From assembly GCF_037975245.1 (NCBI RefSeq), contig NC_092563.1:26600960-26664959 (forward strand): 64,000 nucleotides of DNA, read 5' to 3'. This document shows, piece by piece, positions 2,233 through 64,000 of the stretch; position 1 is the first letter of the stretch, and the number at the start of each line of letters is the position of its first letter. Source of the stretch: Apostichopus japonicus (lineage: Eukaryota > Echinodermata > Holothuroidea > Aspidochirotida > Stichopodidae). The notes under the pieces are model-generated. The model was not told the origin of the DNA and made no database searches. It worked only from the letters and a program-made list of their open reading frames with translations. Both the position numbers and the translations under genes were made by a program.

Positions 2233-2268
2233 ATTCGCTTTATAGTTTGAAGAAGATTTTAATTGCAA

Positions 2269-39955: not shown

Positions 39956-40195
39956 TTTCAGTGGATGGAATTTTATGTGAAATCAACTTGCAAAAAGGAA
40001 ACCTGATGTTTTATTGTCTATTGTTCTCAGTTTGCTGACACTGGAATGTTAAATGATTTTATTTAATACTCAGCTGTAACTGACATCCTTTTTCAGCCAT
40101 ATTACCCTACCTCACCCTATTCATACTCCCTAACCCCCCCCCCCCCCCCTTCCCGCAATCTATTCACCCATCTGTTAACATGCTACCTTTAGTCT

Positions 40196-42321: not shown

Positions 42322-42355
42322 TGGCGCCCCCAGCCCCCCGGTTCCTACGCCCTTG
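42322..42355 (-). mobile_element. hAT-like terminal fragment
   Basis: The inverted 34 bp end of the 20707 family (…GGTTCCTACGCCCTTG). Copy B has about 115 bp of different sequence here, so the fragment came with a deletion or the element was partly excised. Confidence 0.45.
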
Positions 42356-42884
42356 TATGGCAGTGTCTTGTCCAAAAAGGGGAGGGGCGGGGAAGACTGT
42401 AGAGAGAGGGTCCATCGTCAGTCAGGGGGAAAGGGTTCAGCCGGGGGAGGGGGTAGTTTTATTTACATTCGACCGGCAAAGAAGAAGTAGACTACTAATA
42501 CACCTACATTTTCAATCTTCCACAACAAATCAAGAGTATTTATTCAAACAGCCTTGCGTTTGAGCAACTTATAGGCATAATTAATAGTCTAAATAAGCCT
42601 TAGAAAGCACCATTTTGACGTCAGTATGACGGTTATGTTTTGCAGAGGGAGGATCCTCAGAGCGCCCCACAAGGGTGCCGGCTTCAACAACCACAGAACC
42701 TCACCCTCTCTTTTGTATAATCATTGATTCGCCTCCTTAACATCAGTCGGGTGAAATTTTGAATTTAACCCCCACCTCTTGCCCTTTAAAATTTTGTGTA
42801 AGCACTGCTATATGGAGTTACGATGCAACACACGAAGCTATTCTGTAAGTTACAATAAAGATATTCACTACACACAGGGAGTTG

Positions 42885-43790
42885 TTATGAAAGGTAATGG
42901 GGTTGTAGGCTTTTTCTCTAATTGCAGGTCGAAAACAAACAAAAATGTTGTTTTGATAACGGTGAAACTAGATGATTTTGTCAAAGGAGGGGGAAAAAAA
43001 CAAAGTTTTAGGCGCAATTCAGCTGTAATGCACCAAGAAGGGGTGCGGGTATAAGATTTTGTTTCACTAAATGCAGGTCGAAACGCGGAAATGTTTTCTA
43101 CAATGACGAAACTAGAGGATTTTGTCAAGGGAGGGTTTTCGGCGCATTTCAGTCAATATGCGCCAGGAAGGTGAGGGTTTGTAGGCTTTCTTTTTACTAA
43201 ATGCAGGTCGAAAACGCGGAAATGTTTTTAACAACGGCGGAACTAGAGGAGTTTGCTAAGGGAGGGAAAATAAGTGTTTTTGCCAGGCGCATTTCAGCTT
43301 ATATGCGCCAGCAAAAGTGTGGGGAGGTAGGTTCAGGCTTTCCACTAAATGCATGTCGAAAACGAGGAAATATATTTTTTTTACAATGGCGGAAATTCTC
43401 TATAAATGCATGCAGGAAAAGCGAAGAAATGTTTTTGGCCCATTTCAGCCAATGCGCCAAGAAGGGGTTGGGTTTGAAGCTTTTTTTTCATTAATACAGG
43501 CCGAAAACTCGGAAATGTTTGTTAACGTCCATTTGGTATGCAGGGATGGTTCCAGCATTTCCCCGACACGGGAGCTAAGGTCCCAGACAGGGGGCCTAAG
43601 GGCCCCGGAAACAATGGTGTGCACAATTTTTCGCGCGCGTTGTAATAGTAAATATAAAGGTGCGTATATACAATGGCGAAACTAGATGATTTTTACAGCT
43701 AGGGGACGGCAAAGAAGCATTTTGGTCGTCCTATTTCAGCCAATATTCGTCAGAAAGGAGTGGACCTCTTTTCACTAATGTAGGTCGAAT
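42885..43790 (+). repeat. Degenerate ~130 bp tandem array, copy A
   Basis: Repeating blocks of AATGCAGGTCGAAAACGCGG, then AACTAGAGGATTTTGTCAA, then GCGCATTTCAG and ATGCGCCAGGAAGG. All units point the same way. Open frames within it (NAGRKRG-type) are array read-through. The related sequence in copy B lies in two opposing arms. Confidence 0.6.
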
Positions 43791-44195
43791 TAACTGTATT
43801 TTTACTTAAACAGAGCGGGCCCTAATTCCACTCATTTGTCAGGATGTAGTTAGGAACCACTCAATTTTAGTGAAATTTGATCGCCGTCCTGGGGGAGGGG
43901 TTTAAAAGGATGGGTGTCCCCCTCCCATTTGATTTTTTTTTAAATAATTAAGGGTCCTTAGATGCAATATGGTTCTGTATTTTGCAACTTTTTAAGTCAA
44001 TTTATGTTCAAAACCGTTACGTAGTTGCTGATACGGGTGGGGGGGGGGGGGGGTACTGGGTTGAGTTGGATCTCCTGGATCCGCGCCTGCATACAGTTGT
44101 TATTAGCATACGTAGTAGTTACACGAGCTTTTATTACTATATCTACGACTATGTCCTCTTCTTCTTTCTAAACCCAAAAGGATCACAATTACAAA

Positions 44196-47100
44196 ATGAT
44201 TGGGAGTGCATTGTTGGTGGTGTTGTTGGCCTCATGGTCAAGCGGATCCTTTTTATTACCATTTGGTCCAGAATATGAGGATAGAAGAGTTACTGGCCAG
44301 AAATACATCGAACTAGACAACCCGATAAACCTGGATGGAGAACAGTATCAGCTCATTGCTGTAAGTACTACCATTTCCATTAAACACTCTGATCATTGGT
44401 GGGAGGACGGCGAGGGGGGGGGGGCGGGGATGGCGAAAGGTAGGGACGCGGCATCTGATACGGATGTCTTAATTGTAGGACTGTAAGAAGGAGTAGTTCT
44501 GCAACTATACACATCAATGCCTCGCCAGTCCTACATATAATATGTAAAACTAACAAACATTTACCCTGCAGCTTATAGGGTGTGAAGACTCGCGCACAAA
44601 GAAACGTCTCATGCCGTAATCTGACTTAGATTCGAATGAGGTGTAACAGAAGTGTTAGACACCACCATCGATCCCAGAAAATACACACACAGCTTGCTAC
44701 CGTCGGTAATGAGACACTAGTGTACAGTCAATGCATGTACAGCTACAGTCAATACGCACAACAGAGTGTACATTGCAGCGTGGAACATCTCAGGTCTAGA
44801 TAAAAGATAACAAGGTATCACGTTTCATTACGGTCTGCATTTTGAAGCGACAAGAAGAATACGTCATTTGCAAGTAACGGAAAGTTAACTTTTTCAGAGC
44901 GCGGCACGCGATTTGAGTCTTCAATGCCTTTAACTGGTACTGTTGCTTATATTTGCTTTAGAGGATAAAAGAGGTAGTTGCGAACGAGATGTATAAAGCT
45001 TTGCTTAGTTCATGATGAAACTGTGAGGAGGAACCGTAAACTAGACGAAAGTCTTGGATTATATGACGCGTTACTCTAACCTTCATCATTTTCCTCTTTA
45101 CAAGGTGATTTAATGTTATATATAGTGCACAACGGAATTGATTGCTTCTCAGATTTGAAAACAGTGAATATTTTACAATGTTAATCTTGACGGAACATGT
45201 ATCATCTATATATAAACCTACGATACGTGATATTGTTTTGAGTATTGTCCTTTTCATTGTTCAATTAGGTTAACAAGAGAGGCTATTTGTCCTTGAAGAA
45301 GGCTGCTCTTCTTTTCTCAAAACAAGATGCAAGAGTCTCAGTTATCGAAGAAGAGGATGATCTTACGAAGTCCAAACCTATCGATGTTTTCTTTCGCTTG
45401 ACCAATGATACGGATATGAAATATGCTATTGATTCTCTGATAGAGAAAACTCACCCGACGTTATTCAAATCGGATCAGTTACTAATCACAACATGGGTTC
45501 AACATGGCTGTCAAGAGGCACCGAAAAGTGAGGTCAGTATAGAGACTGTTAATAGAGTGAAAATGAAAGGCATAATAGAAATAATAAAAGAGAAAGTTAG
45601 ACACAAAGCGTCCTTATAGTATCATAACGATTTCAAAGTATTGTCTTTTAAGCCTTTCCTTAATTATCCTTAGAAAGATTTCAATTGCTACTCTTATCAA
45701 AATGTAATTGAACACTTTCCTTTTTGTTGCAGGATTATGTTAAATATCAATTGTTTCATAGCCAGCATAGAAAAATATGTATGTGCTATTTATGTGCATG
45801 TAACAAGGCATGCTGTAGCAATGACATATTGAGTGGGGTGAGGCACAGACTATACACAAATATCGTAGACGACATGGTCCAGGGGCGAACATTTGCAGGC
45901 ATGTCGTATACCAACTATCCATTTCCGTGTTGTGCCTGCGAAATCTAACTGTGCATGGGAGCATAGGCGTAGAAGCCTAATTTGATTTGGGATGGGGGGG
46001 GGGGCTGTAACGACTTGCCCGAAAAATATAACCAATTTTTTTTTCGCGCGTTCAACATGTCAATGTGCATATCATATAGGCAGTCATCGGTTATTACATC
46101 ACATGCCAATAACATACAATCTTTTTCCGTGATGTTAACCTTCCACATATATAAGTATTGGGGAAGTCGTTACAATGGTAATAATGATACAAGTTTAACC
46201 ATTGAAAAAAAAAATTGCAAGTTATTTTCTTTCAGTAGGTGCCCGAAAAATTTTCAGCATATTGCCCGAATTTTCACAAACATTTTTGGTTGGGGGATGC
46301 ACCCCCAGCCCCCGCCTCCTACGCCTATGCATGGGAGGGGCAAGCATTGGCGTCTCAGGGTCACAAAATGTGTTAATTCGTCACTGATATAGGTTGATGA
46401 ACTTAGAACAAACCTTTGTAGGGGGAAGCAAACCCTTGCAACCGCCCTCTTGTAATTGATGGAGTCAATTAAGTTAAGTCCTTTCCTATTTGTGATAATC
46501 CATGGCTTGTCGTCTTTATTGAAGGTATTCCTATTATCAATGTGTGATATCAAATTGTGTTTCTCACAGAAGACGAAGGAAATGAAAAGAACCACCCAAT
46601 GCGTGCTTGCTAGTGACGCAGTCCAATCATACGCCGTTTACCTCACAGATGGAGGCGGGGCTTGTAAAGATGGTCACGTGACTTTAAATGATGAGGAATC
46701 TGGCAACATTGCTGGAAGTAATTTTTCCAGGGAAGACGTTCCTGCCTCTCGTCATCTTGTAAGGGAGCAAGAGGCTCATCATCATTCACCAGTAGTGGTG
46801 CAACTGCACAGAGATCCTTTACCTGGTATGTTTACATGTCGAACTACCGCACAATGCAAGGCAAATGAAAAGTCCTGTCCATGTGTATAACATTACCTTA
46901 TAAGTCGCACATTTTTGTACATTTTTTATAATGTATTCACGCCCACCTTCCACACGATGCTCAGAGGAGATATTGTAGCCAATGAATGGGTGTCTGATAC
47001 TCCACCACGTGACGTTAAACGATCATGATCACATGGTCTCAATGTAAGGGGCAGAGGTTGAGTCTTCAGAGCGAATGAAATTGTTAAGTTTTCTATCTTG

Positions 47101-47215
47101 AGTGATTTTCCTTGAAAACAACATCTTTCACTATGATAACGTTGTCTAACATGCACAAAGTTAAGGAATCCACTCCTACCCCCCCATCCCCTCCCCTCCC
47201 TGAAAGTACAAGATC

Positions 47216-47256
<41 letters not shown>

Positions 47257-48723
47257 TTGAAATCGTAGTATATATATTTTTATTTATATGTAGATGAATA
47301 TATATAGATGAACAAATACGTTTAAAACTATCTACGTCACCTTGGTCTCTATGTTATTATGTCGCCCACAGGCGGACCTAATGCCACCGTATCCGACTTT
47401 GAAATGTTCCAGCTTTCAACTGAAAGGGGCAATTGTCTGTCACTGTCTCAATCGAAAGGTTACGTAATAAGTTGCAATGATGATAATGGTCGTGTTGAAA
47501 GAAATACAGTTTTCCGTCTCCATGGATCGCCTGGAAATCAACAAATGGAGTTATTTGGATCCGGACAATGTTTGGACCGCGAACATTGTCATTCCAGCTC
47601 ATCTAATTTACGTTCTTCTGATTGCAGTCACTGTGGGGCGATTCACTGGTACATGAGAGGAGATGGGACCCTAAGGGAAGACAATGGCGCCAACTGCATC
47701 TATGTCGTGCAATCAACCAACCAGGCCGAAGTCCACCATTCCTCTTCCGGATGTACCAGCTTTCACGTGATTCATCTCGGTGATATCGTACAATTCAAAA
47801 GTCCCTCCAAAGGTGATTGCTTAGGAAACGGTGTCTTTGTTGAATGTAACCTTGCTGGTAGATTCAGGATCTACAATTTACCTCGTCAATATCAACTCAA
47901 AGACGCAAGAACCGGCTTTTGTTTCGATAGAGAGCATTGTCATGCATCCACGTCTAACACAAGGCTCTCCACCTGCAGTCATTGTGGCGCTATTCATTGG
48001 TCGATCGAGAACATTAAAGTTGGTGAAGATGATATGAAAAACTGTGTCAACAGAGGAACAGCAAACTCGGCCGTCATGAAACACTGCTCAGATGGTTGGG
48101 AGAAGCTTAACTGTGAAATATCTACAAGTGTCGGTTCTTCTTCTTCTTCGACCCCTACAAACTCTTCCTCCATCATTACTGGACTACCCAAACCCGACAT
48201 TTCATACTACATGAAAATGATGCCCCATCGGCAAATCTCGGGCGCACGGCTGTATAAGGAAGACCGCGATGGGTTTGCTAGGCTTGAGTTTGTCCACGCA
48301 TTGCCCAATCAAAACACGTTTCATGTTGTAACAAACCAGGGCGTTCTTGATGTTCAATATTGGGTGGTGACGATCAACACGAATGCCCCACACAATGACA
48401 CATTCACCCCTGGTGAATTGTTTCGTGAGCTGATGATATCTGGATCGAACACCATCAGAGAGATCCATCTGAGATACGCGGCTGTTGATGTTAATCGTCG
48501 ACTGTTTGGTGAGAAGGACGGCCTCCTGAGTTTCTTCTTGAAGGACGAAGATGCTTACAGACCGCTTCCATATCAAATCCTGAAACAAATTCATATATCT
48601 CTCGAACAAGATGATTTGTGGCGTTATGCACCGACTGTCCATAACAACACGTACACTCAGAGTTACTTTACATTTGTTGGGGAAACATTTATCAACATAG
48701 CACTTTATTGGCCTAAAGACTAA
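44196..48723 (+). CDS. Secreted NIDO plus trefoil-like lectin protein, paralog A
   Basis: Exons 44196-44360, 45269-45532, 46570-46825 and 47372-48723 have AG/GT borders and phases 0, 0 and 1, giving 678 residues. A hydrophobic signal peptide (about 1-18) precedes LLPFGPEYEDRR. The first three exons fit a NIDO domain (nidogen/tectorin type): LPFGPEYxD, VNKRGYLSL, VFFRLTND, LLITTWVQHG, TTQCVLASDAVQSYAV. Residues 229-476 hold two CFDREHC…CSHCGAIHW blocks that look like cysteine-rich ricin-type beta-trefoil repeats. A Ser/Thr linker leads to a ~180-residue C-terminal domain (starting KPDISYYMKMMPHRQ) that I do not recognise. Likely an extracellular carbohydrate-binding or matrix protein. Introns carry two copy-A-specific mobile elements. 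Exons are inferred without transcript data. Confidence 0.75.
44577..44929. mobile_element. TTAA-type non-autonomous element in NIDO intron 1, copy A only
   Basis: Ends AGGGTGTGAAGACTC and, inverted, AGGCATTGAAGACTC. The right flank is TTAA (44930-44933) and the left TTAT, probably a mutated TTAA. Copy B shows the empty site GCAGCTTAACTGG near 58105. Confidence 0.6.
45733..45948 (+). CDS. Possible alternative terminal exon of paralog A
   Basis: After a good acceptor (TTTTTGTTGCAG) in intron 2, a frame compatible with exon 2 (phase 0) runs 72 codons to TAA. It is Cys-rich (ICMCYLCACNKACC). Copy B has the same acceptor and frame with two indels of 9 and 3 bases, both frame-preserving, then stops at 59083. 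Use would give a NIDO-truncated protein without lectin. There is no transcript evidence; it may simply be intron. Confidence 0.25.
   Translation, partial: DYVKYQLFHSQHRKICMCYLCACNKACCSNDILSGVRHRLYTNIVDDMVQGRTFAGMSYTNYPFPCCACEI
45962..46329. mobile_element. hAT-like non-autonomous element, copy A only
   Basis: Ends CATAGGCGTAGAAGCC and, inverted, CATAGGCGTAGGAGGC, with an 8 bp target duplication CATGGGAG (45954-45961 and 46330-46337). Copy B reads GTGCATGGGAGCGGCAAGC, the empty site, near 59170. Located in NIDO intron 2. Confidence 0.8.
47221..47254. repeat. (AT)n microsatellite
   Basis: Seventeen AT units in the last intron of paralog A; absent from paralog B. Confidence 0.85.
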
Positions 48724-50128
48724 TCGACTGATTTCACTGTACTGTTAAACGGACGTTTAATGAAAACTAAGGACCATATTTTGACGTCTTTATAGGGTAT
48801 TTTACTTAGATTGGTTTTGCTTCCTTTGATGATCATGAAAGAAACTATATAAGTCTTTAATTCTTTTCTTTTTTCCATTTTCTTGATAAAGCAGCAATTT
48901 AAAAAAAAAATCATAAGAGGCATATTACTTCAGAAATTAGCTATTCCAAATAAGATACGGTAATCATTTGTAAAGTAGATGAAATCATATGGCTTTGTGT
49001 ATATAAGTAAATTTACCATCATTTCGCGAGCATAACTAACAGAAAATGTGCAAATTATGACTTTTTATGAAAATGAGCTATGACAACTCTGTTCGCACTT
49101 AATAGTTAAATATAGTGGTGTATTGCCTTCACAGTATTGCCTGCGTGTTACCATCTATATTATTGCCAACGCAGATCCACATGCCCCAATGAAAACACTT
49201 TGTGGTTTTACCCATGCATGCTCAACGGGATTATGTTACCATTTAGGGGCTAGATGGGTCCAGCGGCCCCGATCCCCGAGATCTTGAGGGGCCGAAAATT
49301 AGAAGGTAAAAGCGGAAAAGTAAACTTGAGAAAATATTGTTCGGCCAGACATTAATTCCAAGTAACAAGCTGTGAACGAGATCTATCTTGGCAATGCACT
49401 CCTCTGCGCTTGCGCTGTACACACATAATTATTGCGCACGTGACCTCCCGTCGGGGCTGCAGCTCACGGTCAGGTGGGGCCGCAAAATTTATGTTTGGCT
49501 TTGTACCACCATACCTTCACTGTTCTACCGCTACAGTGGTTTGCACAGGATTTCAAAGGTGGCGGGGGAGTCGGAACAAATTTCAATCCCCCCCAACCCA
49601 ACTTCTTAAGGTATGTGGCTCTACTGTTGTTGAAGGGCAAGAGACGAATGAAGGATTGTGTATAGGAGGGGGCTGCACTTTGGGTCAATTTAGCCGACCC
49701 ATGTGAAGGAGGTTTGAACGTCAAATGGTACATTCTGATGCATTAGTTAAGTATAGCATTAACGCAAGATTGTGCTACTAAATAATAGCATAAACTCCAA
49801 ATTCCCCCGACTAATTTAGGTAGTGACATATGGTACTTCATGGGAGAGCCACATGTGAATGAAGTATTTTATAAAGGCAGGGGTATTGGCGTGGAGTCTT
49901 TGAAGCCCACCCACACCCATATATGAGTGATCTGGGGATCCAGATGATGCATTCTGATGCATAGTTGGACTATAATTTAAGTATCAAGGCTATAAGGTAG
50001 ATCTATACTGAGGTAGCCCTACTAAACGGAGGTTTTGCTAATAAATATTTTGAGTGAGTTTTAAAAAGAAAGGATTGGTGAGGGTACACTCGTCTTAGTG
50101 GTCCCATTCTTCCTCAACAGAATGCAAC
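48724..50128. other. Downstream flank of paralog A
   Basis: No gene. It aligns with 61544-62937 in copy B. The right end (about 49870-50128) resembles two tandem units at 62690-62960 and 63220-63700. The duplication junction is at 50128/50129. Confidence 0.5.
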
Positions 50129-51977
50129 TTCTGAGGGTGACAGCTTCGAGCAAGGGTTTAGACTCATTCTCAAACATTTCAAGGTTAGTCTCCACATTGC
50201 CCTCTAAGTAGGAAGTTACATTTTATGGCTTCTGAGGGTGACAGCTTTCGAGCAAGGGTTTAGACTCACTCTCAAACATTTTCAAGGTTGGTCTCCACGC
50301 GGCCTCTAAGTAGGAAGTTACATTTTACATTATATATGTTATCGTATTATATTACATCTGGAATTTCAAAATATACCAAAATCGGAAATGACGTAAGAGA
50401 TATGTCAATGTTTGCTCGATTGTGTGTGGTTACCATAGGTTGTAAAAACAATGCATTCAAACACTGCATCATTTATACCCAACTGCTAAATTCAGAAGGC
50501 AGTTGAAATAATACGATGCACTTACTATGGACATCTGATAGGACTCTGTGAAACAAAAACAAAAGTTTCGCCGTCAAGAACTTTTCTCAAACACTGCGGA
50601 AAAATGATTGAATTTATATGATTCTCAGAGGCATGTTAGAATATACAACCTGATCAAGCAAGAAATGACCAAGAAATTGTTGACTAATGCCAAGTGGGTG
50701 TCCAGCATCGCCGTACACCCAGGAGGTGAGGTTTATTGGATTAGATGTGCTTGGTGGATAAATGTTTATTAAAACAGGTACCTTTTTTTCTCAAACCAAG
50801 TTAAGGGTAAATTTGGAGTCGTTTTATTAATATTGACAAACCGTCAACCTAACTTCTCAGTTCAAGGTGCTGTGTGATGTCAATTTTATATGTGTCAATC
50901 AATTACCCTGAACACTCTTAACTCGTTAACAAAGTTATTATGTACCTTCTTTTATAATCATGATAAGAAAAGCATTACAAATATCCTTTAGTCTGCACAT
51001 ATCGATATGTGTTCTCACCTATAAGACAACAATTAAATGATGTCTGGTTAGCAAGGGAAAGAGAAAGGCCTCTGTCGGAAAATAATAAATGTTATGACTT
51101 TCATTCTCTTAAGAAAAACTTCAGTTACTTTCAATGGAAGTCGCATGACATAAGGTATTTCCCTTTCACATTCAGGCTCACTGAATTTTATTTATTTTTA
51201 CATTCAAGAGAAAGAACTTGCAGATGTATGTACTTGTCACAAGAAATCATTTTGTCATTAAACGTTTTGTTTTTATTGGCATTCCGTAAGAAAGATAATG
51301 CACACCAGTGAAAAGAAGTGAATTAGTTTGATGTTCCCCTATTCGTCAAGCCTCTTTAAAAACGTATAGATGTAATGAGGGTACTGTCTGGTAATATGGA
51401 GGGGAGAGGTGGGAGGGTTGATGGATGAGGAGGGTGGTTGATGAGGAGGGTGGTGGATTAGGAGGGTTGATGGATGAGGAGGTTTGATGGATGAGAAAGG
51501 CGGTGGATGAGGAGGGTGGTGGTAGAGGAGGGTGGTGGATGAGGGGGTGGGTAGATGAGGAGGGTTGATGGATGAGGAGGGCGGTGGATGAGGAGGGTAG
51601 ATGGATGAGATGGTGGTGGATCAGGAGGGTGATGGATGAGGAGGGTGGGTGGGTGGATAAGGGGGCTGGGTGGATGAGGAGAGTGGGTGGATGAGAGGGT
51701 GGATGGGTGGATGAAGAGGGTAGATGATGAAGAGGGTGGTTGATGAGGAGGGTGGTGTATGAGGAGGATGGGTCGGTGGATAAGGGTGGTGGAAGTTTTT
51801 CGGATTCCATTGATTTCCAATTCCATTGATTTCAGTGACTTGCTCCAGAATCCCCTGATCGTCCCTGTCAAGGTCCTAAAGGGTCACGCCATCACCAACG
51901 GCCTGGGCGTTCTTTGCTGCGAATTCCACCCGGAGTCAACCCTGGATATTTTCGAGTGCCGCAGATGTTATGACTAG
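50129..51977 (+). pseudogene. BOP1: BOP1 3'-end pseudogene
   Basis: Contains the 3' end of exon 9 (duplicated as in copy A), an exon 11 counterpart (about 50630-50726) and exon 13 (51836-51977). Exon 10 and the start of exon 11 were lost by a ~750 bp deletion joining TATGATTC to TCAGAGGC. Exon 12 was lost by a second deletion ending in the minisatellite. Exon 13 has an extra G (CACCCGGAGTC), which shifts the frame and removes the RLFT ending. No promoter or 5' exons are present. Confidence 0.85.
51396..51785 (+). repeat. GGAGGGTGGTGGATGA minisatellite, copy B
   Basis: Expanded version of 38636-38825, fused directly to sequence homologous to 37545-37560. The long minus-strand Pro/Ser/His open frames over it are array read-through. 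Confidence 0.7.
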
Positions 51978-53078
51978 GCGTTTCACCTAACACCTCGTAG
52001 AGCTAAATGAAACATATTCCAGGAAAGGGACGCTCGACAAATGACGGCTTCTTGCTAGACCAATCAAAGTTAGCCATGGTTAATGTCAAGTTGACCATAT
52101 GTTAGGCGCCTCCTCGCAACATCCTGGTCGTCATAGCAACAACGGTTTTGATGTTATTGGTAGACTACCAGACAACAGGGCTGTGAGTCCAGTACAACCG
52201 CAGCTTCTTGGAGATGCAGTCTTAACCACAGAGTTATGTATTTGTGGAAGGATGAGGATACACTTGTTGAGCAGCGTCCGTCAACGACGTCTTACTTTGC
52301 AGTTGTATGGGAGTACCATTTGTGTGACAATGGGACATTAATCTGATAATTGACTAAAGTTTATAACGACAGGCCTTAGCTTATTATGGATCAAAATTGA
52401 TATCACTGGAGTTCTTGGTGTAACAACACAGTGTTTACCCCTCTTTTCGACCATTGGTACGTGACAATAGACCATTGGACATGCTGGGATTCCGAAAGAA
52501 AAGATTGAACCATAAAGCAATGCATAGTGAATATAGAATGTGTACCAAGTGAGAGAACACCTGGGCTTGGCATTGATATATAACATGTCTCGATTCTGTT
52601 CACCAGCTCTTTGGAGTATTTTTAGGTTATAAAAAGTGTTAATGCATTTTCAGAGATAGAGAAAGTTCATCCAATTGGGACACTAACTCACCTGAATGGG
52701 TCTGTAAAATTATTGGTAATGACCAGATGCTAAGTTAAGTAATAGGTTATTATTCTGCTAGTATATGAGAATATAGGGAGTATTCATCATGTATCATGAA
52801 GGAACAATGTTGTTTTGTTTTAAAATGAAACCAAATAAAACAAATTTCAGTGGATGAAATTTTATATGAATCAACTTGCAAAGAGGAAACCTGATGTTTT
52901 ATTGTCTATTGTTCTTAGTTTGCTGACACTGGCATGTGAAATGAGTTTATTTAATACTCAGCTGCTACTGACATCCTTTTCCAGCCATATTACCCTACCT
53001 CACCCTATTCATACTCCCTAACCCCCCCCCCCCTTCCCCCAATCTATTCACCCATCTGTTAACATGCTACCTTTAGTC

Positions 53079-53835
53079 TTAAGATAAGATAAGATAAGTA
53101 AAACTTTATTGATCCCAAAGGGAAATTCAGGCACTCGCTCATAAAACAATGAAAAAGTTACAAAAATAGATGTGTATATTGTACAATAAGACAGTAAGAA
53201 TAGTAAGAAAAAGTCAATATATGAAAGTCAACGTAATAAAACCTCATTGAAAAGCTTAATTGCACGGGGTATGAAAGAATCTCTGTATCTATTGGTTTTG
53301 AGACACGGAAGTCTCAACCTGCCACTGCCTCTGGACATCTGACTATTCTGAAGTAGCTCATAGAGGGGGTGGGTATGGTCCTTCCATACCACGTCCAGTT
53401 TGGACTCGAGAAGGCTGTGGTAGACCGAGTCAATGGAAGGCAATGGTTCCCCGACTACTCTCTTCGCTTTCTTAAATCTTAATGATGCTGTTAACACGAT
53501 CTATTTCATGTTTGTTTGCACTCCCACCCCGCAAACCAAGCAATAACGCCAAACCCCGCTAATGGTACAATTATAAAACATTTCAAGGATGTCATGACGA
53601 ACATCAAAATTCGACATCTTACGGAGGCAGTACAATCTAGAATTCAACTTTTTCACCAATATATCAATATGATCTCCCCATGCCAAGTGATCATTCAGCA
53701 CTACCCGAAGATACTTATATGACGTAACACGATCAACTACACTTCCTTTGACAACAACAGGGAGTGGAGGATTAGTATTGCGGCGAAAATCAATAATCAT
53801 TTCTTTGGTCTTAGCAACATTAAATTGTTGTTAAA
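53079..53835 (-). mobile_element. 5'-truncated L2/CR1-like LINE, copy B
   Basis: Duplicated with its host segment from 40196-40945; same truncation point and frames. The AAGAT tail has one more unit than copy A. Confidence 0.7.
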
Positions 53836-55339
53836 CTTTAGGTCCTACTTCATTGACATCACCTCTCTCTTTACACCCATCCGACCCCCCTCCCTCCAAA
53901 CCTCTTTACACCCATCCGACCCCCCTCCCTCCAAACCACAGATATTTTTAACATGTTATACCATTTAACCATTTCAGTGCAGGTGTGTACATGTCTGCCT
54001 GTACAAGGGGTGTTTAATATTTGTGTCCTTCAGTAAAACGAAACTAATTTTCTGTTCGCCTTTAAAACTAATTTCAAGCGACAGCTATGAAACTGATGTG
54101 AATTGATTTGTAAATTAGTACCAATTGAAACTTTAAGTTGGTTAAACAAATAAAAGCCTCAAACGTGTGCTATATTTGCGTGTTATTGGAACTTGCTTAT
54201 TCACTTCTTTCTTCGTCCACTTTCTCTTCTTCATTTTCGTATGAAACAAAAACAATTCAATCGAATCACCCCCCCCCCCCCAACAAAAGAATGAAATAAG
54301 CCTTTTATACATCTATAGTTTGTGATATTTCGCATTCAAAGCGAACGTTTAAATTTCCGGAAGGAATAGAAAAACAACTATATATTTGAATGCTTGTTAC
54401 ATTGTGCCTGGCACACATCAACCAGGAAGTACCTTCGAATCGACTTTCTCTTAACAAGTCTGTTGTTTGTGAAGAGTCACAACAGTTGAAGAAACGGTGC
54501 AGCGCATACTGTCCGATCATCAATAACAGAACGTGGCGTGCAGGTAATTATTGTTTTTGGTCATTTTTGTACCACTTCAGTATTTCATGTATTCGTCGTC
54601 TGTCCTTACATTGGTTGGTGAGTTAGTTACGCCGTTCATTTTATGTTACCGAATGCTCATATACCAAAACTGATGTTTGTTTTTAACATGCAATATTTCA
54701 AGGTTTGTTCTACTTGAGGTTAGTCAAGACAAAAGCTGTTTGTTTTATGTTGGCATAAAAAAGATATGTAGGATATATGGCAGTGTCTTGTCCAAATATA
54801 GGGATGGGGCGGGGTAGAGAGGAGGGTCCATTGTTAGAAAGGGGAAATGGTTCAGGCGGGGGGGGGGGGATTGGGGGGTTTATTTACATTCGGCCGGGAA
54901 AGAAGAAGTAGAACATTAGTAGAAGTATAGACTCACATTTTCAATCTTCCACAACAAATCAAGAGTATTTCTTACCACAGCCTTTTTTTGAGCAACTTAT
55001 AAGCATAATTAATAGTCTAAATATGTCTTAGAAATTAATGCACCATTTGACGTCATTATGGCGTTTACGTTTTGCAGAGGGAGGATCCTCAGAGCGCCCG
55101 ACACAGGAGTCGGCTTCAGCAACTACAGAACCTCACCCCATCTTTTGTATAAACATTGATTCGCCTCTGGTCTTACCAAAAAAGTGTCAAGTCCCTTCCT
55201 TAACATCAGTCGGGTGAAATTTTGAATTTTAACCCCCACCCTCTGCCCTTTAAAAGATTGTTTAAGCACTGCAATATGGAGTTACGATGCAACAGACGCA
55301 GTTATTCTGTAAGTTGCAATGAAGATATTCTCTATACAC

Positions 55340-57220
55340 ATAAGCTTATCGGCCAGGTCGAGAATGCGTAAATCGATAACCCGACTTCGGTAATCGAGAA
55401 ACCGGGTTCGATATCAAAGGTTTCCGCGTTATCGATCTTGCTATTATAATAGCAAGGTCGCAAGCGCGGAAACGAGAGGATTTTGTCAAAAGAGGGTGAC
55501 GAAAACTTTTGGGCGCATTTCAGCCTATATGTGCCAGGAAGGGGTTCGGGTTTAAAGCTAAATGTAGATCGAAAAGGCGGAAATCTTAAAGGTTACAATG
55601 GATGAGTTTCATTATTTTCAAGTTTTTTGAGGTCATTTTAGCTAATATTGTTGTTTTTATACTAAATGCAGGTCGAAAACGTGGAAATGTTTTTTTAAAC
55701 AATAAATGGGGAACTAAAGGATTTTGTCAATTGAGGGAAAAGAGTTTTCGGCGCATTTCAGTCAATATGCGCCAGGAAGGTGATGGGGTTGTAGGCTTTT
55801 TCACTAAATGCAGGTCGAAAACGCGGAAATATTTTTTACCATGGCGAAACTAGAGGATTTTGTCAAGAGAGGGTTTTCGGAGCATTTCAGTCAATATGCG
55901 CCGGAAAGGAGAGGGGTGGCGGGCTTTTTGATGCCTTGCCGAAGGCTCAAGGAATCTATGTGATGGTGATTGCGTGTGTATGTGTGTGTATGTGACGCCC
56001 TTGGCTCGTAAACACGATTTTATGCATATTTATTAGGGGGAGTGCATTGTTGGTGGTGTTGTTGGCCTCATGGTCAATCGGATCGTTTCTATTAACATCC
56101 TAATAACCCTCACCCCTTGTGCCCAAAACACTTTTTCACCCTCTCTTGACAGAATCATCTAGTTTCGACATTGTAAAAAAAAAAACATTTCCGCGTTTTT
56201 GATCAGCATGCACTTACTGAAAAAAGTCTCATACCCCCACTCCATCCTTGCGCATATTGGCAAACACTTTTTCAGCTTTTTCGACCTGCATTAAGTGAAG
56301 AAGCCCCTACCAACCTCCACACACCTTTGCTGGCGCATATTGGCTGAAATGCGCCCGCCAAAAACACTTCCTTTCCCTACCTTAGCAAACTCCTCAGTTC
56401 CACCTTTGTTAAAAACATTTCCGCGTTTTCGACCTGCATTTAGTAATATTAAAACTGACTCCACCCCTCCCGCAACCTCTCCTGGCCTTCCGTGACAAAA
56501 TCCTCTAGTCTCGCCATTGTCAAAAAAGAAAACATCTCCGCGTTTTCGACCTGCATTTAGTAAATGAAAAAACCTTACAACTCCTCCTTCCTGGCGCATA
56601 GTGACTGAAACTGCCGAAACTATTATACCTCCCTGGACAAAATCCTCTAGTTTCGAAAAAACATTTCCGCGTTTTCGACTTGCATTTTGGGGAAAAGCCT
56701 ACAATCCCATCACCTTCCTGGCGCATATTGACTGAAATACGCCAAAAATTCTTCACCCTTCCTTGACAAAATCCTCCAGTTTCGCCATTCATTGTTAAAA
56801 AAAAAAAAACATTTCCGCGTTTTCGACCTGCATTAAGTAAAAAATATAAAAAAACCTAAGCCTTTCCCGCTCCTCCTGGCGCATATTGGCTGAAATGCGC
56901 TCGAAAAACCTTCTTAACCCTCCCTTGACAAAATAATCGTAACTCATCCATTGTAAACTTCAAGATCTCCGCGTTATCGACCTACATGTAGTGAAATAGC
57001 TTGAAGCCCGCACCCCTTACTAGCGCATATAGACTAAAATCCGCCCTAAAGACTTCGTCACCCTCCCTTGACAAATTCCTCTCGTTTCCGCGCTTTCGAC
57101 CTTTCGTTATAGCAAGGTCGATAACGCGGAAACCGTTAATATCGAACCCGGTATCTCGATTACCGAACTCGGTTTATCGATTTCAGCGGTTTACGCGTTA
57201 TCGACCTGGTCTAAGCTTAT
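55340..57220. mobile_element. Foldback element with opposing arrays and a captured exon fragment
   Basis: Termini ATAAGCTTATCGGCCAGGTCGA and the inverted equivalent at the right enclose ~115 bp inverted repeats rich in ATCGATAACGCGGAAACC phrases. Inside, the ~130 bp units known from 42885-43790 run forward on the left (55470-55930) and inverted on the right (56100-57110). The middle (55930-56100) contains a TGTGTGACGCC…GTAAACACGAT phrase and a piece of NIDO exon 1. No transposase. Confidence 0.6.
56038..56098 (+). pseudogene. NIDO exon 1 (signal peptide) fragment
   Basis: Matches 44200-44258 and 57726-57790 over GAGTGCATTGTTGGTGGTGT and following bases. It shares GGCCTCATGG with paralog A and GTTTCTATTA with paralog B, so it may represent a third, older copy. 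It lacks the initiator ATG. Confidence 0.65.
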
Positions 57221-57721
57221 CCAAGTATGTTTACAAGACAGGTGTACACAGTGTTCGCTATATATGGCGGTGCATCTACATTTCCACGGTCATTTGGTTT
57301 ATATAACATATATCATCGCCAGAATTCTGATTAACGGAGTCATCAATTGGAAAACCGGTGTAAAATGGGACAAATGGAAAAAATGACGGGTTCCTACAAC
57401 ATCCAACAAAAAATTGTCCTTTTCACAAAAGAAAGTAAAAACAACTGATGTTAGTTTAGTACATATATATAGCAATGTCACATATGAAAACATGTAAGAA
57501 ATGCCTTCATTTGGTACATTGTGCATGATCATCATATACAGCCACGTTGCGATCACCTCATGTGTGACCCAGCTTTATAACAGCGGGTTTGTTTTTCTGT
57601 CCTTCTCGATTAATCTGCCAAACAATAATAGTAATACCATATCAGATATGATCATTAATCTTAGTATATCTATGCCTATGTCCTCTTCTTCTTTCTAAGC
57701 CCAAAGGATCACAATTACAAA

Positions 57722-60700
57722 ATGATTTGGAGTGCATTGTTGGTGGTGTTGTTGGTCTCATGGTCAACCGGATCATCATCGTTTCTATTACCATTTGGTC
57801 CAGACTATGAGGATAGAAGGGTTACTGACCAAAATAACATCGAACTAGACAACCCGATAAACCTGGACGGAGAACAGTATCATCTCATTGGTGTAAGTAC
57901 TACCATTTCCATTAAACACTATATATGATAATTGGTGGGAGGACGGGGAGGGGGCGGGGAGATGGCGAAAGGTAGGGACGCGGCATCTGATACGGATGTC
58001 TTAATTGTAGTACTGTAAGAAGGAGTAGTTCGGCAACTATACACACATATGCCTCGACAGTCCTACATATTGTAGGCCTAATACTAACAAACGTTTACCC
58101 TGCAGCTTAACTGGTAGGCCTAATGTTGCTTACATTTGCTTTTAAGGATAAAATAAGGAGTTTGCGAAGAAGATGCATAACGCTTTGCTTAGATCATGAT
58201 GAAACTGTGAGGAGGAACCGTAAACTAGACGAAAGTCTTGGATTATATGAAGTGCACACCCTAACCTTCAACTAATCCACTTTACCCGCCCATTATCCCC
58301 TTTCACAATGTGATTTAATGTTATATAAAGTGCACAACGGAATTGATTGCTTCTTAGCTTTTGTAAACAGTCAACATTTTACAATGGTAAGGCTTGACGG
58401 AACATGTGTCATCTATATACAAACCTACGATACGTGATATTTTGTTGAGTGTTTTTTTTTTCTTTTCTTTTCATTGTTCAATTAGGTTAACAAGAGAGGA
58501 TATTTGTCTTTGAAGAAAGCTGCTCTTCTTTGCTCAAAACAAGATGCAAGAGTTTCAGTTATCGAAGAAGAGGATGATCGTACGAAGTCCAAAGCTATCG
58601 ATGTTTTCTTTCGCTTGACCAATGATACGGATATGAAATATGCTATTGATTCTCTGATAGAGAAAACTCACCCGACGTTATTCAAATCGGATCAGTTACT
58701 AATCACAACATGGATTCAACATGGCTGTCACGAGGCACCGAAAGGTGAGGTAAGTATAGAGACTGTTAATAGAGTGAAAATGAAAGGCAATATAGAAAAA
58801 ATAAAAGCAAAACTTATAGACACAAAGCGCACTTACAGTTTCATAACGATTTCAAAGTATTGTCTTTCAAGCCTCTTCCTATTTACCCTTAGAAAGATTT
58901 CAATTGCTACTCTTATCAAAATGTAATTGAACACTTCCCTGTTTGTTGCAGGATTATGTTAAGTTTCATAACCAGCATAGGAAAATATGTATGTGCTATA
59001 TATGTACATGTAACAAGGCATGCTCTAGCAATCGTGACAAATTGAGTGGGGTGAGGCAAAGACTGTACCCAAATATCGTATAGTCGACATGGTCCAGGGG
59101 CAAACATTTGCAGGCATGTGGTATACCAACTATCCATTTCCGTGAAGTTGTGCCTGCGAAATTTAACTGTGCATGGGAGCGGCAAGCATTGGCGTCGCAG
59201 GGTCCCAAAAGGTGTTAATTCGCCACTGATATAGGATGATGAATTTAGAAAAAGCCTTGTAGGGGGAAGCAAACCCTTGCAACCACCCTCTTTTAATAAA
59301 TGGAGTCAATTAAGTTAAGGCCTTTCCTATTTGTGATAATCCATGGCTTGTCGTCTTTATTGAAGGTATTCCTATATCAATCTGTGATATCAAATTGTGC
59401 TTCTCACAGAAGACGAAGGAAATGAAAAGAACCACCCAATGCGTGCTCACTAGTGACGCAGTCCAATCATACGCCGTTTACCTCACGGATGGAGGCGGGG
59501 CTTGTAAAGATGGTGACGTGACTTTAAATGATGAGGGACCTGGTAACATTGCTGGAAGTAATTGTTCCAGGGAAGACGTTACTGCCCCTCTGCATCTTGA
59601 AAGGAAGCAAGAGGCTCATCATAATTCACCAGTAGTGGTGCAACTGCACAGAGATCCTTTACCTGGTATGTTTACATGTCAAACTACCGCACAATGCAAG
59701 GCAAATGAAAAGTCCTGTCCATTTGCATAACATTAACTTATAAGTCGCACATTTTTGCACATGTTTTATTATGACTTCCATCAATTTGATAAAAACAGCG
59801 TATTCACGCCCACCTTCCACACTATGCTCAGAGGAGATATTGTAGCCAATGAATGGGTGTCTGATACTCCACCAAGTGACGTTAAACGATCATGATCACA
59901 TGGTCTCAATGTAAGGGGGCAGAGGTTGAGTCTTGAGAGCGAATGAAATTGTTAGGTTTTCTATCATGGGTGACTTTTTTTGAAAACGACATATTGTAAT
60001 ATGATAACGTTATCTAACTTGCACAGAGTTAAGGAATCCACTCCTACCCCATCCCCTCCTCGACTTGAAAGTACAAGATCTGTATGACTGCCAAGTATTG
60101 CTGACGAAGGTCAGAATATATATAGATGAAGAAATATTTATAAAACTATATACGTCCCTTGGCTTCTATTTTATTATGTCGCCCACAGGCGCACCTGATG
60201 CCACCGTATCCGACTTTGAAATGTTCCAGCTTTCAACTAAAAGGGGCAATTGTCTGTCACTGTCTAAATATGAAGGTTTCGTAATAGGTTGCAATGATGA
60301 TAATGGTCGTGTTAAAAAAAACACAGTTTTCCGTCTCCATGGATCGCCCGGAAATCAACGAATGGATTTATTTGGATCCGGACAATGTTTGGACCGCGAG
60401 CGTTGTCGTTCCAACACATCTAATTTACGGTCTGCTAATTGCGGTCACTGTGGGGCGATGCATTGGGACATGAGAAAAGATGGGACCCTTATGGAAGACA
60501 AAGGCTCCAACTGCATCTATGTCGTGCAATCAACCAACCGGGCCCAAGTCCACCATTCCTCTTCCGGATGTACCAGCTTTCGCGTGATTCCTCTAGGTAA
60601 TGTCGTACAATTCAAAAGTCTCTCCAAAGGTGATTGCTTAGGAAACGGTGTCTTTGCTAGATGTAACCTTGCTGGTAGATTCAGGATCTACAATTTACCT

Positions 60701-61543
60701 CGTCGTTATCAACTCAGAGACGCAAAAACCGGCCGTTGTTTCGATAGAGAGAATTGTCATTCATCCACGTCTAACACAAGTCTCTCCACCTGCAGCCATT
60801 GTGGCGCTTTTGATTGGTCGATCGAGAACACTAAAGTTGGTGCAAATAATATGAATTACTGTGTCAACAGAGGAACAGCTAACTCGGCCGTCACGAAACG
60901 ATGCTCAAGTCGTTGGGAGAAGCTTAACTGTGAAATATCTAAAAGGGTCGGTTCTTCTTCTTCTTCGACCCCTACAAATTCTTCCTCCATCATTACTGGA
61001 CTACCCAAACCCGACATTTCATACTACATGAAAATGATGCCCCATCGGCAAATCTCGGGCGCACGGCTGTATAAGGAAGACCGCGATGGATTTGCTAGGC
61101 TTGAGTTTGTCCACGCATTGCCCAATCAAAACACGTTTCATGTTGTAACAAACCAGGGCGTTCTTGATGTTCAATATTGGGTGGTGACGATCAACACTAA
61201 TGCCCCGCACAATGACACATTGACCCCTGCTGAATTGTTTCGTGAGCTGCTGATATCTGGATCGAACACCGTCGTCAGAGAGATCCATCTGAGATACGCG
61301 GCTGTTGATGTTAATCGTCGACTGTTTGGTGAGAAGGACGGCCTCCTGAGTCTCTTCTTGAAAGACGAAGGTGCTTACAGACCGCTTCCATATCAAATCC
61401 TGAAACAAATTCATATATCTCTCGAACAAGATGATTTGTGGCGTTATGCACCGACTGTTCATAACAACACGTACACTCAGAGTTACTTTACATTTGTTGG
61501 GGAAACATTTATCAACAGAGCACTTTATTGGCCTAAAGACTAA
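57722..61543 (+). CDS. Secreted NIDO plus trefoil-like lectin protein, paralog B
   Basis: Exons 57722-57892, 58486-58749, 59410-59665 and 60189-61543 match paralog A in borders and phases, giving 681 residues (two extra Ser in the leader, one extra Val near the C-terminus). Signal peptide, NIDO domain and C-terminal domain are nearly the same as in A. The lectin-like middle differs at about 50 of ~247 positions, many toward Lys/Arg (for example DREHCHSS to DRERCRSN; GAIHW to GAMHW and GAFDW). All frames are open, so it is probably functional. The longer open frame from 60065 includes intron sequence and is not the protein start. Transcript evidence is lacking. Confidence 0.75.
58952..59083 (+). 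CDS. Possible alternative terminal exon of paralog B
   Basis: Counterpart of 45733-45948: same acceptor and Cys-rich frame (ICMCYICTCNKACSS), ending early at a TAG caused by a 2-base insertion relative to A. Very tentative. Confidence 0.2.
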   Translation, partial: DYVKFHNQHRKICMCYICTCNKACSSNRDKLSGVRQRLYPNIV

Positions 61544-64000
61544 TCGACTGATTTCACTATACTGTTAAGCGGACGTTTAATGAAAACTAAGGACCATATT
61601 TTGACGTCTTTATAGGGTATTTTACTTAGCTTGGTTTTGCTTCCTTTTATGATTCCCTTTGATCATGAAAGAAACTATGTAAGTCTTTAATTCTTTTTTT
61701 TTCCATTTTATTGATAAAGCAGCAGTTTAAAAAAAACATAGGAGGCATATTACTAAAGAAATTAGCTATTTCAGATATGATAATCATTTGTAAAGTAGAT
61801 GAAATTGAAACCATATGGTTTTGTGCATGTAAGTAAAGATTTAGCGAGCACAATTAACAGTAAATTTGCAAATTATGACTCATTTATGAAAATGAGCTTT
61901 GACAACTCTGTTCGCACATAATAGTTAAATATAGTGGTGTATTGCCTTCACAGTATTGCCAGCGTGTTACCATCTATATTATTGCCAACGCAGATCAACA
62001 TACCCCAATGAAAACACTGTGTGGTTTTACCCATGCATGCACGACCATTGGGCTAGATGGGTCCAGGCCCCGATCCCCGAGATATTGAGGGGCCGAAAAT
62101 TAGAAGGTTAAATCGGAGAAATAAACTTGAGAAAATAGTGTTCCGCCAGATACATTACTTCCAAATAACAAGCTTCAGTGAACGAGATCTATCTTGGCAA
62201 TGCACTCCTCTGCGCATGCGCTGTACACACATATTTATAGCGCACATGACCTCCTGTCGGCGCTGCAGCTCACGATCAGGTGGGGCCGCAAAATTTATGT
62301 TTGGCTTTGTACCACCATACCTTCACTATATATTCTACAGTGGTTTGCACAGGATTTCAAAGTTGGTTGGGGAGGCGGGACAAATTCCAGTACCCTCACC
62401 CCCCCCCCCCTTCCAACTTATTAAGGTATATGAGGCTGTACTTTCGTTGAAGGGCCAGAGACGAATGAAGGATTGTGTACACGAGGGGGCTGCACTTGGG
62501 TCATTTAGCCGACCCATGTGAAGGAGTTTTGAACGTCAAATGGTACATTCTGATGCATTAGTTAAGTATAGCTTTAAACGCAAGATTGTGCTAGTAAATA
62601 ACTAGCATAAACTCCAAAATCCCCCCGACTAATTTCGGTAGTGACATGGTTCTTCATGGGAGAGCCACATGTGAATGAAGTATTATATAAAGGCATGGGT
62701 ATTGGCGTGGGGTATTTAAAGCCCACCCACTCCCATGTATGATTGGTGTGCGGATCCAGATGATGCATTCTGATGCATAGTTAGACTATACTTTATACTT
62801 TTCTATACTGAGGTAGCCCTATGAAACGGAGGTTTGCTAATAAACATTTTGAGTGAGGTTAAACAATAAAGGATGGGGAAGATTACACCCGTAAGTAGTG
62901 GTTCTATTCTTTCCCAACAGAATACAACGATCCCCCGACTGAACCATACTCCCCCGACTGACGATGGTGGGGTCATGCCCCCACCACCACCACCCTTTTT
63001 GCGAACACCACTGCTTCATAGCATTAAGGTTGAAAACCGAAAACATGTAACGCATACCCCTGTACGTCCGGTTTCATTTTCATTTTCCATTTTATGGTGA
63101 AATATTCTTTGTTGTGTTCTGCAAAGCGAAACAATTACTGAACTATTTGAGAAATGCCACGATCGTGGAACGCTGAATACGACCGACAAAATTTAAGAAA
63201 AGGAATTTATATAAAGAAGTGCATGGTACTGGCGTGAGGTCTTTAAAGCCCACCCACTCCCATATATGAGTGGTCTGGGGATCTTAATGGTGCATTCTGA
63301 GGAATAGTTAGACTATATTTAGGTTTTTATATAAAACGCTTAGCCTAAAAGGGAAATAATAAATTTTAATTTTCTGACTGATAAAGGCAGGGGCCGGAAC
63401 CTTTATAATGTAGGGTTTGCTGCCCTGGGGTTATTAAAGCCGTCTCCGGTGAGGGGGTTGAGGGTCACCCCCCCCTCCCCGGCAAGATATAGACGTCAAA
63501 TGGTGAATTCGAAGGCATATCAAGGCTATAAGGTAGAATTATACCGAAGGTGCCCTATAAACGGAGGTTTTGCTAATAAATATTTTGAGTGAGGTTTAAA
63601 CAAAAAAAAGGACTGGGGAGGGTACACTCATTAGTGGTCCGATTCTTCCTCAACAGAATGCAACGAACACCCGACTGAACCATATCCCCCCGACTGACGG
63701 AGGCCCTACCACCACCACCACCCCTTTTGCCCCTTTTGTTGTATTATGCGAAGCGGAACAATGACTGAACTATTTGAGAAATGCTACGATCCGGCGAGCC
63801 GCTGAATACGACAGAATTTAAAATATATTTATTATTGTTACGTGTCACCCTTCAGCGCTCCAGATGATGATAAGATACTAAGCAACAATGCCAAAAGTCT
63901 TTTGGGAACTGAGAATGAACCGTGAACTTACATATATAATGAACAGAATAAAAAATCGACTGCAACTATACAATCAAAGGTTGACCTTAAAGGGAGTGAA
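61544..64000. other. Downstream flank of paralog B with local tandem repeats
   Basis: No gene recognised. 62690-62960 and 63220-63735 are related units (shared AAAGCCCACCCACTCCCAT, GGAGGTTTTGCTAATAAA and CGACTGAACCATA); the second has a ~220 bp extra block containing G/C runs. The same sequence also forms the right edge of copy A. Confidence 0.5.

What the first reader, a model, noticed from the sequence alone, without database searches (positions are those of the whole stretch)
47372..61543. Lectin part diverging fast and turning basic while the C-terminus is nearly frozen
By eye about 50 of ~247 lectin-region residues differ between paralogs but only about 8 of ~200 after the Ser/Thr linker. 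Many changes in B go to Lys or Arg (E18K, E43K, H73R, H75R, F to R, E to R, and others). This suggests selection for a new ligand in B, or gene conversion that keeps only the C-terminus alike.
Basis: partly seen in the sequence, partly recalled or inferred. Interest (0 to 1): 0.7.

Follow-up and report, generated by a model that had tools for sequence, protein, structure and literature searches.

The report
Duplicated lectin-like gene turning basic
Two neighbouring copies of an animal gene have kept one end almost unchanged while the lectin-like part of one copy has become positively charged, a pattern that natural selection for a new binding partner would leave.

Summary
A tandem duplication carries two intact four-exon genes (A, 678 aa; B, 681 aa): signal-peptide-like start, NIDO domain, two ricin-like lobes, Ser/Thr linker, and ~180 residues matching no family. 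In the last exon 55 of 252 residues differ up to the linker's start and 7 of 197 after it, plus one single-residue indel. This change point was reached in 0 of 1000 permutations; silent sites show none (P=0.72).

Conversion alone is disfavoured (p=0.05; 0.015 against the rest of the gene). Lectin dN/dS is 1.5 by counting (0.84-3.38) and 1.9 by ML (p=0.055; 0.011 with a gene-wide silent rate). Against introns and flanks, lectin amino-acid change only equals the neutral rate. Yet indels are 0 against 10.4 expected, Cys changes 0 of 17, and charged/His sites run 1.74x noncoding (p=0.0046).

Net charge goes from -4 to +13 (simulated P at most 0.003). With the lobes as outgroups for each other, the polarisable changes lie mostly in B (17:5).

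Best reading: neofunctionalisation with B's lectin-like part turned cationic, as in ECP/EDN ribonucleases. Ligand unknown; drift is the main rival.

The parts
35220..50128 (+). Duplication unit, first copy (holds gene A); starts inside a BOP1-like WD40 gene
   Evidence: self-BLAST: 35220-35730 matches 50128-50623, then further pieces, with unmatched gaps, up to 47296-50128 vs 60114-62928. BOP1: phmmer of the 34925-35296 ORF ranks two designed WD40 proteins first (1.2e-24); human-type BOP1 8fkp_SS is third (6.8e-23) and the one of the top hits with a single stretch over residues 11-117
50128..62928 (+). Duplication unit, second copy (holds gene B); begins with a truncated BOP1 fragment that lacks the stretch matching 35731-36489
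44196..44360 (+). Gene A exon 1: signal-peptide-like start (by eye) and beginning of the region before the NIDO match
   Evidence: splice sites and frame shared with B
45269..45532 (+). Gene A exon 2, NIDO region
   Evidence: NIDO PF06119 E=6e-6, 26.8 bits against a cutoff of 25, A residues 86-169
46570..46825 (+). Gene A exon 3, end of NIDO match and spacer
47372..48723 (+). Gene A last exon: lectin-like part, Ser/Thr linker, C-terminal domain, stop
47374..48123 (+). Gene A lectin-like part: two ricin-like lobes (residues 230-479), net charge -4, 17 Cys
   Evidence: PF00652 E=0.00066 for lobe 1 alone, 20.3 bits, below the curated cutoff of 29; counts
48124..48183 (+). Gene A Ser/Thr-rich linker
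   Evidence: change point at its start
48184..48720 (+). Gene A C-terminal domain of about 180 aa, no Pfam family found
57722..57892 (+). Gene B exon 1
58486..58749 (+). Gene B exon 2, NIDO region
   Evidence: NIDO 23.1 bits, just under the cutoff of 25
59410..59665 (+). Gene B exon 3
60189..61543 (+). Gene B last exon: lectin-like part, linker, C-terminal domain, stop
60191..60940 (+). Gene B lectin-like part, net charge +13, 17 Cys at the same positions, 7 His fewer than A
60941..61000 (+). Gene B Ser/Thr-rich linker
61001..61540 (+). Gene B C-terminal domain, nearly identical to A

Best explanation
A tandem duplication (first unit about 14.9 kb, second about 12.8 kb) in an animal genome made two copies of a gene for a probably secreted protein: NIDO / two ricin-like lobes / linker / C-terminal domain. 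Shown: both copies have open frames and canonical splice sites, silent divergence does not differ significantly along the last exon, and amino-acid change is concentrated in the ricin-like part with a sharp edge at the linker. Shown statistically: change in that part makes B more basic than neutral change would. Inferred: selection kept the NIDO and C-terminal parts (scaffold, oligomerisation or effector) and drove charge changes of the ricin-like pair, mostly in B, so that B binds a more anionic ligand such as sulfated or sialylated glycans or bacterial envelopes, while A keeps the older role.
For: Lectin dN 0.106, dS 0.072; linker plus C-terminus dN 0.020, dS 0.045; nonsynonymous difference Fisher p=7e-8, synonymous p=0.46. 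C-terminal nonsynonymous change is far below noncoding (9 of 460, p=4e-10). ML omega of the lectin part 1.91 alone (LRT vs 1 p=0.055); 1.81 vs 0.62 with a silent rate shared with the rest of the gene (omega=1 rejected p=0.011); 2.24 vs 0.42 with one shared with the C-terminus (p=0.004). Lectin indels 0 against 10.4 expected at the noncoding rate, P=3e-5. Cys changed 0 of 17 (Fisher p=0.019); DEKRH codons 1.74x (classed by A) and 1.79x (classed by B) the noncoding rate, p=0.0046 and 0.0039. Charge +17 in B: P=0.0013 and 0.003 (two kappa values) starting from A, 0 of 3000 for each starting from B. Both lobes shift (-6 to +4; +2 to +10); pI 6.39 to 9.21. Lobes as outgroups: A state shared 17, B state shared 5, p=0.017 (a first column-wise count gave 14 to 4). 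At lobe-identical residues in A 26 of 44 degenerate codons differ, so recent copying between lobes does not explain that identity.
Against: Against the noncoding yardstick the whole lectin part has ratio 1.01 (p=0.94). The count-based omega interval includes 1 (0.84-3.38), lectin N against its own S gives one-sided p=0.15, and against all silent sites of the gene 0.043. The LRT on the lectin part alone is p=0.055, and omega below 1 in the NIDO part or C-terminus is not significant in itself (p=0.18, 0.21). Raw N:S contrasts are 58:11 vs 9:6 (p=0.069), vs 26:13 (0.053), vs 35:19 (0.019). The charged/His result is one of eight overlapping residue classes (Bonferroni about 0.04); the wider polar class gives p=0.08 and 0.05; against gene silent sites the Cys result is only p=0.097. 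Coding silent sites are lower than noncoding (30 of 449 vs 267 of 2738, p=0.043), which inflates omega. Two sequences only, no outside outgroup. No usable structure (pLDDT 30.1), so surface exposure is untested. No expression or binding data.
Confidence: 0.68

Rival explanations
1. Relaxed constraint: after duplication the lectin part of B is no longer needed and drifts at the neutral rate, while the rest of the protein stays constrained.
For: Lectin amino-acid change equals the noncoding rate (0.0985 vs 0.0975, p=0.94). Most polarisable changes are on the B side (17:5). Residues shared between the lobes of A change almost as often (16 of 90) as the others (31 of 138).
Against: 0 indels against 10.4 expected; no stop against about 3 expected and 0 of 17 Cys changed; directional charge shift outside the neutral simulations; charged/His sites above the noncoding rate.
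Confidence: 0.2
2. Gene conversion alone keeps the C-terminus alike, with no difference in selection.
For: C-terminal silent sites plus the first 155 aligned bases past the stop are less divergent than other noncoding sequence (11 of 291 vs 267 of 2738, p=0.0004); C-terminal silent sites alone p=0.036. A probable conversion tract exists elsewhere in the unit: 40101-41044 differs at 11 of 939 sites, the neighbouring 38893-40100 at 73 of 1188.
Against: No silent change point along the exon (P=0.72), and the 91-residue frozen run has 4 silent differences. Same-omega/different-rate model disfavoured (p=0.0501; 0.0149 against the rest of the gene). The NIDO part, with dS 0.092, also has omega 0.52, though its interval includes 1.
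Confidence: 0.04
3. Both: selection in the lectin part plus occasional conversion across the C-terminus and start of the 3' UTR. This overlaps with the best explanation, so the odds do not add up to one.
For: The same low silent count downstream of the linker.
Against: C-terminal silent divergence is not significantly below that of the lectin part (p=0.46), and the low 3' stretch could be a conserved UTR.
Confidence: 0.25
4. False duplication: two diverged haplotypes joined in assembly.
For: Cannot be excluded without reads; some marine animals are very heterozygous (general knowledge; the species is unknown).
Against: About 10% divergence and 14 indels per kb in the noncoding yardstick; no N in the window; the match to the interior of BOP1 begins at 50128, the same base at which the match of the first unit ends, as in a plain tandem duplication.
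Confidence: 0.05

Closest known systems
Primate RNase3/ECP after duplication from RNase2/EDN
   Same: After duplication one copy gained Arg/Lys and a higher pI (10.47 vs 9.20), with the positive charge tied to binding of bacterial walls (PMC3845642, passages seen).
   Different: An enzyme of the RNase A family, not a lectin-like multidomain protein; there the charge effect has been tested at the bench, here nothing has.
Acropora CEL-III lectins under positive selection
   Same: Lectins of a marine animal with dN/dS above 1, proposed for immunity or symbiont recognition (PMC3119059, abstract and passages seen).
   Different: Orthologues between species, not tandem copies; no charge shift in the passages seen. 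That CEL-III is two ricin-type trefoils plus a pore-forming domain without NIDO is recalled. No CEL-III chain appeared in the PDB sequence searches.
Mytilectins with an extra C-terminal domain
   Same: R-type trefoil joined to a further domain (MytiLec-2 and -3 with an aerolysin-like domain; PMC4882566, start of abstract in the listing).
   Different: Our C-terminal domain matched no Pfam family, so nothing shows that it forms pores.

Membership tests
Ricin-type beta-trefoil (R-type) lectin, PF00652/PF14200 | Profile match above curated cutoff | tested here: not met
   PF00652 17.2 (A) and 20.3 (B) bits for the last-exon ORFs, 20.3 and 21.1 for lobe 1 alone, cutoff 29; PF14200 18.2 bits in B, cutoff 25.6; so called 'ricin-like' only
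Ricin-type beta-trefoil (R-type) lectin, PF00652/PF14200 | Gln-X-Trp motifs (recalled; also named for an annelid R-type lectin in the listing, PMC8399747) | tested here: not met
   read from the alignment: the Trp positions read IHW, IHW, DGW in A and MHW, FDW, SRW in B
Ricin-type beta-trefoil (R-type) lectin, PF00652/PF14200 | Trefoil fold | tested here: inconclusive
   AlphaFold2 model at mean pLDDT 30.1 is unusable
Ricin-type beta-trefoil (R-type) lectin, PF00652/PF14200 | Carbohydrate binding | not testable with these tools
   needs a glycan array
NIDO (nidogen-like, PF06119) | Profile match above curated cutoff | tested here: met
   met in A only: 26.8 bits against 25, E=6e-6, profile 38-120 of 186; B 23.1 bits, just under
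Neofunctionalisation by positive selection after duplication | dN significantly above dS in the changed part | tested here: inconclusive
   p=0.055 alone, 0.011 or 0.004 with a shared silent rate; equal to the noncoding rate overall
Neofunctionalisation by positive selection after duplication | Asymmetric change, one copy keeps the ancestral state | tested here: inconclusive
   17:5 by lobe outgroups, p=0.017, which favours A as the conservative copy; but no outgroup from another species was available
Neofunctionalisation by positive selection after duplication | Different biochemical function of the copies | not testable with these tools
   none

The most novel reading that the evidence does not exclude
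In A both lobes share a His/Cys pattern (EHCH ... CSHCGAIHW), although 26 of the 44 degenerate codons at lobe-identical residues differ, so the repeat looks old and selected. B breaks it in both lobes (H71R, H73R, H188N, H208D) and goes from 14 to 7 His, with His to Arg at four places. The duplicate would then have turned a pH- or metal-dependent site into a permanently cationic one: an environmental switch fixed in the 'on' state by duplication.
Probability: 0.15. Interest if true: 0.62.

Novelty: new member of a known kind. Interest (0 to 1): 0.45.

Why it matters
It is a clean natural contrast: two neighbouring copies from one duplication with similar silent divergence along the last exon, where one module has changed and in a definite direction. 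That makes it a testable case of how duplicated recognition proteins acquire new ligands module by module, and of whether a charge increase, known from ECP-type ribonucleases, is a repeated route in lectin-like proteins. I did not see the architecture (NIDO, two ricin-like lobes, unknown C-terminal domain) in print in the searches that named both parts: 0 papers; 2 papers, 1 listed; its 'nido' matches seen are nidovirus names; 6 papers, listing only; 15 of 2,356 listed. These cover open-licence papers only.

Tried and rejected
Conversion alone: tested with silent counts, change points and codon models, and disfavoured. Pseudogene or plain drift of B: disfavoured by frame, Cys and stop counts. 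A third copy of the gene in the window: none among the self-BLAST matches of 120 bp or more that were printed; a distant copy would be missed. Relatives for an outgroup: none in genome contigs (10 pattern stretches, none confirmed), viral contigs (1, none confirmed), phages or plasmids. These are not animal collections, so the absence says little. Own genome not held. NCBIfam: no family.

Structure: both AlphaFold2 jobs gave mean pLDDT about 30 (30.1 and 29.2) and were not used for fold searches, so a surface-versus-buried test was replaced by residue classes. A weak PDB profile match of the C-terminal domain to the BP39L propeller lectin (6gxr, E=0.0011 summed over seven repeats, none significant alone) was not taken as homology. 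The CdtA Pfam match (E=0.0029, under cutoff) is read as generic trefoil similarity.

Choices that bear on the numbers. Two donors were tried for exon 2; the first broke the frame in both copies and the second kept it in both. The first charge simulation used a threshold of 18 instead of the 17 that applies to 250 residues, and was repeated. The noncoding yardstick (2738 sites: introns 1 and 2, most of intron 3, 48881-50128) leaves out the 5' flank (61 aligned sites), the TA-rich end of intron 3 (155 sites, high) and the first 155 aligned bases after the stop (low: 5 differences). It also leaves out the rest of the unit upstream of the gene, where 38893-41044 is less divergent (84 of 2127 over its two parts) and 41045-42808 mostly more so; the yardstick therefore depends on the stretch chosen.
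Full report
What is there. The window is eukaryotic (spliced genes). A BOP1-like WD40 gene (phmmer of one ORF: two designed WD40 proteins rank first, BOP1 8fkp_SS third at 6.8e-23 with a single stretch over residues 11-117) is followed by a tandem duplication: the unit from 35220, inside that gene, to 50128 recurs from 50128 to about 62928, with gaps. Each unit holds one four-exon gene with canonical splice sites and an unbroken reading frame: A, 678 aa, and B, 681 aa. The protein has a signal-peptide-like start (by eye), a NIDO domain (A 26.8 bits against a cutoff of 25; B 23.1, just under), a 250-residue part with two lobes resembling the ricin trefoil but under Pfam's cutoff, a Ser/Thr linker, and about 180 residues that matched no Pfam family. 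The lectin part has no QxW motif, read.

The observation. In the last exon the best change point for amino-acid differences lies after A residue 481, at the start of the linker, with 55 of 252 before and 7 of 197 after. None of 1000 permutations reached it. Silent differences (15 codons in the exon) have no change point (P=0.72). There is one further single-residue insertion in B. By counting, the lectin part has dS 0.072 and dN 0.106 (omega 1.48, bootstrap 0.84-3.38), the linker plus C-terminus dS 0.045 and dN 0.020 (0.44, 0.15-1.61), and the NIDO region dS 0.092 and dN 0.048 (0.52, 0.25-1.22). Nonsynonymous rates of lectin and C-terminus differ at p=7e-8, synonymous ones at p=0.46.

Conversion or selection. 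If conversion alone kept the C-terminus alike, silent sites would be low there and omega the same on both sides. The ML model with the same omega and separate silent rates is worse at p=0.0501 against the C-terminus and 0.0149 against the rest of the gene. The model with separate omega and one silent rate is not worse than the free model (p=0.44 and 0.98). Raw counts of nonsynonymous to silent changes are 58:11 in the lectin part against 9:6 in the C-terminus (p=0.069) and 35:19 in the rest of the gene (p=0.019). The longest run of unchanged residues, 91 long (A 482-572), contains 4 silent differences in 64.7 silent sites. On the other side, C-terminal silent sites with the first 155 aligned bases past the stop have 11 differences in 291, against 267 in 2738 noncoding sites (p=0.0004), and elsewhere in the unit 40101-41044 differs at only 11 of 939 sites. 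Some conversion near the 3' end is therefore possible in addition.

Positive selection or drift. ML omega of the lectin part is 1.91 alone (p=0.055 against 1), 1.81 with a silent rate shared with the rest of the gene (p=0.011), and 2.24 with one shared with the C-terminus (p=0.004). Introns and flanks give a less favourable yardstick: pooled noncoding divergence is 0.0975 and lectin nonsynonymous divergence 0.0985 (p=0.94), while coding silent sites as a whole are lower (30 of 449, p=0.043). Against noncoding sequence the lectin part as a whole is thus at ratio one, and the C-terminus far below it (9 of 460, p=4e-10). But the lectin part is not free to drift: 0 indels against 10.4 expected (P=3e-5), no stop against about 3 expected, and none of 17 cysteines changed where 4.4 changes were expected (Fisher p=0.019). 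If part of the domain is constrained and the total equals neutral, another part should exceed neutral. By residue class, codons for Asp, Glu, Lys, Arg and His change at 1.74 times the noncoding rate when classed by A and 1.79 when classed by B (p=0.0046, 0.0039). The eight overlapping classes tested make this about 0.04 after correction. The wider polar class reaches p=0.08 and 0.05. The yardstick itself varies along the unit.

The direction. Over 250 residues B is 17 charge units more positive than A (-4 to +13); 22 substitutions move charge up and 7 down (p=0.008). Neutral simulations with the same number of amino-acid changes, Cys and Trp kept, reach +17 with P=0.0013 and 0.003 (two kappa values) starting from A and 0 of 3000 each starting from B. 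Over 251 residues there are 16 gains and 4 losses of Lys/Arg (p=0.012), 10 acidic residues lost and 4 gained, and calculated pI 6.39 to 9.21; both lobes shift. His goes from 14 to 7. The rest of the last exon after residue 251 moves only from -3 to 0 and the N-terminal part from -8 to -9.

Which copy changed. No outgroup from another species was found in the collections at hand, which hold no animals as such. The two lobes can serve as outgroups for each other: where A and B differ and one state is shared with the other lobe, A has the shared state 17 times and B 5 times (p=0.017; a few columns count twice). A first count by columns gave 14 to 4, with 22 undecided. Of 90 residues shared between lobes in A, 16 differ in B; of 70 shared in B, 4 differ in A. 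Of the 44 degenerate codons at lobe-identical residues in A, 26 differ, so that identity is not recent copying between lobes.

Mechanism. Most likely the scaffold parts are held by purifying selection and the recognition part of B was selected for a more anionic ligand. ECP after duplication from EDN is the precedent for the charge route: PMC3845642 (passages seen) states that pI rose through arginine and lysine and that these residues matter for antibacterial activity. Coral CEL-III lectins with dN/dS above 1 are the precedent for the protein kind (PMC3119059, abstract and passages seen). The ligand, the expression and the role of the C-terminal domain are unknown; the two structure models were unusable.

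Verdict. The selection reading is favoured, conversion alone is disfavoured, and drift is the main rival. The kind of event is known; this is a clear new case of it.

Noticed in passing
window 40101-41044 vs about 52989-53937: Stretch of the duplication differing at only 11 of 939 sites, while the adjoining 38893-40100 differs at 73 of 1188: a probable recent conversion tract or a constrained element.
   Followed up: partly
gene B exons 2 and 3 (58486-58749, 59410-59665): B has two more cysteines than A before the lectin part (5 vs 3). Read, both are Phe in A, one in exon 2 and one in exon 3, so a disulfide may have been gained in B or lost in A.
   Followed up: no
window 48184-48720: C-terminal domain: weak profile match to the BP39L propeller lectin 6gxr, E=0.0011 summed over seven repeats, none significant alone.
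   Followed up: no
window 50128-51375: Truncated copy of the BOP1-like 3' part at the junction; the piece matching 35731-36489 is missing.
   Followed up: partly
window 51398-51793 and 38640-38823: Minisatellite-like repeats rich in GGGTGGATGAGGA-type units at matching places in both units, longer in the second.
   Followed up: no
window 75-2548: Retroelement-like ORFs (gag-like with a CCHC knuckle, then a protease-like ORF, by eye) between two 90% identical direct repeats, 75-359 and 2269-2548.
   Followed up: no
window 3556-4115: A 280-bp unit repeated in tandem at 99.6% identity.
   Followed up: no
window 55370-57183: Four inverted-repeat pairs with arms of 75-148 nt, 76-92% complementary, upstream of gene B; possibly a mobile element, since the collinear match to A is interrupted there.
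   Followed up: no
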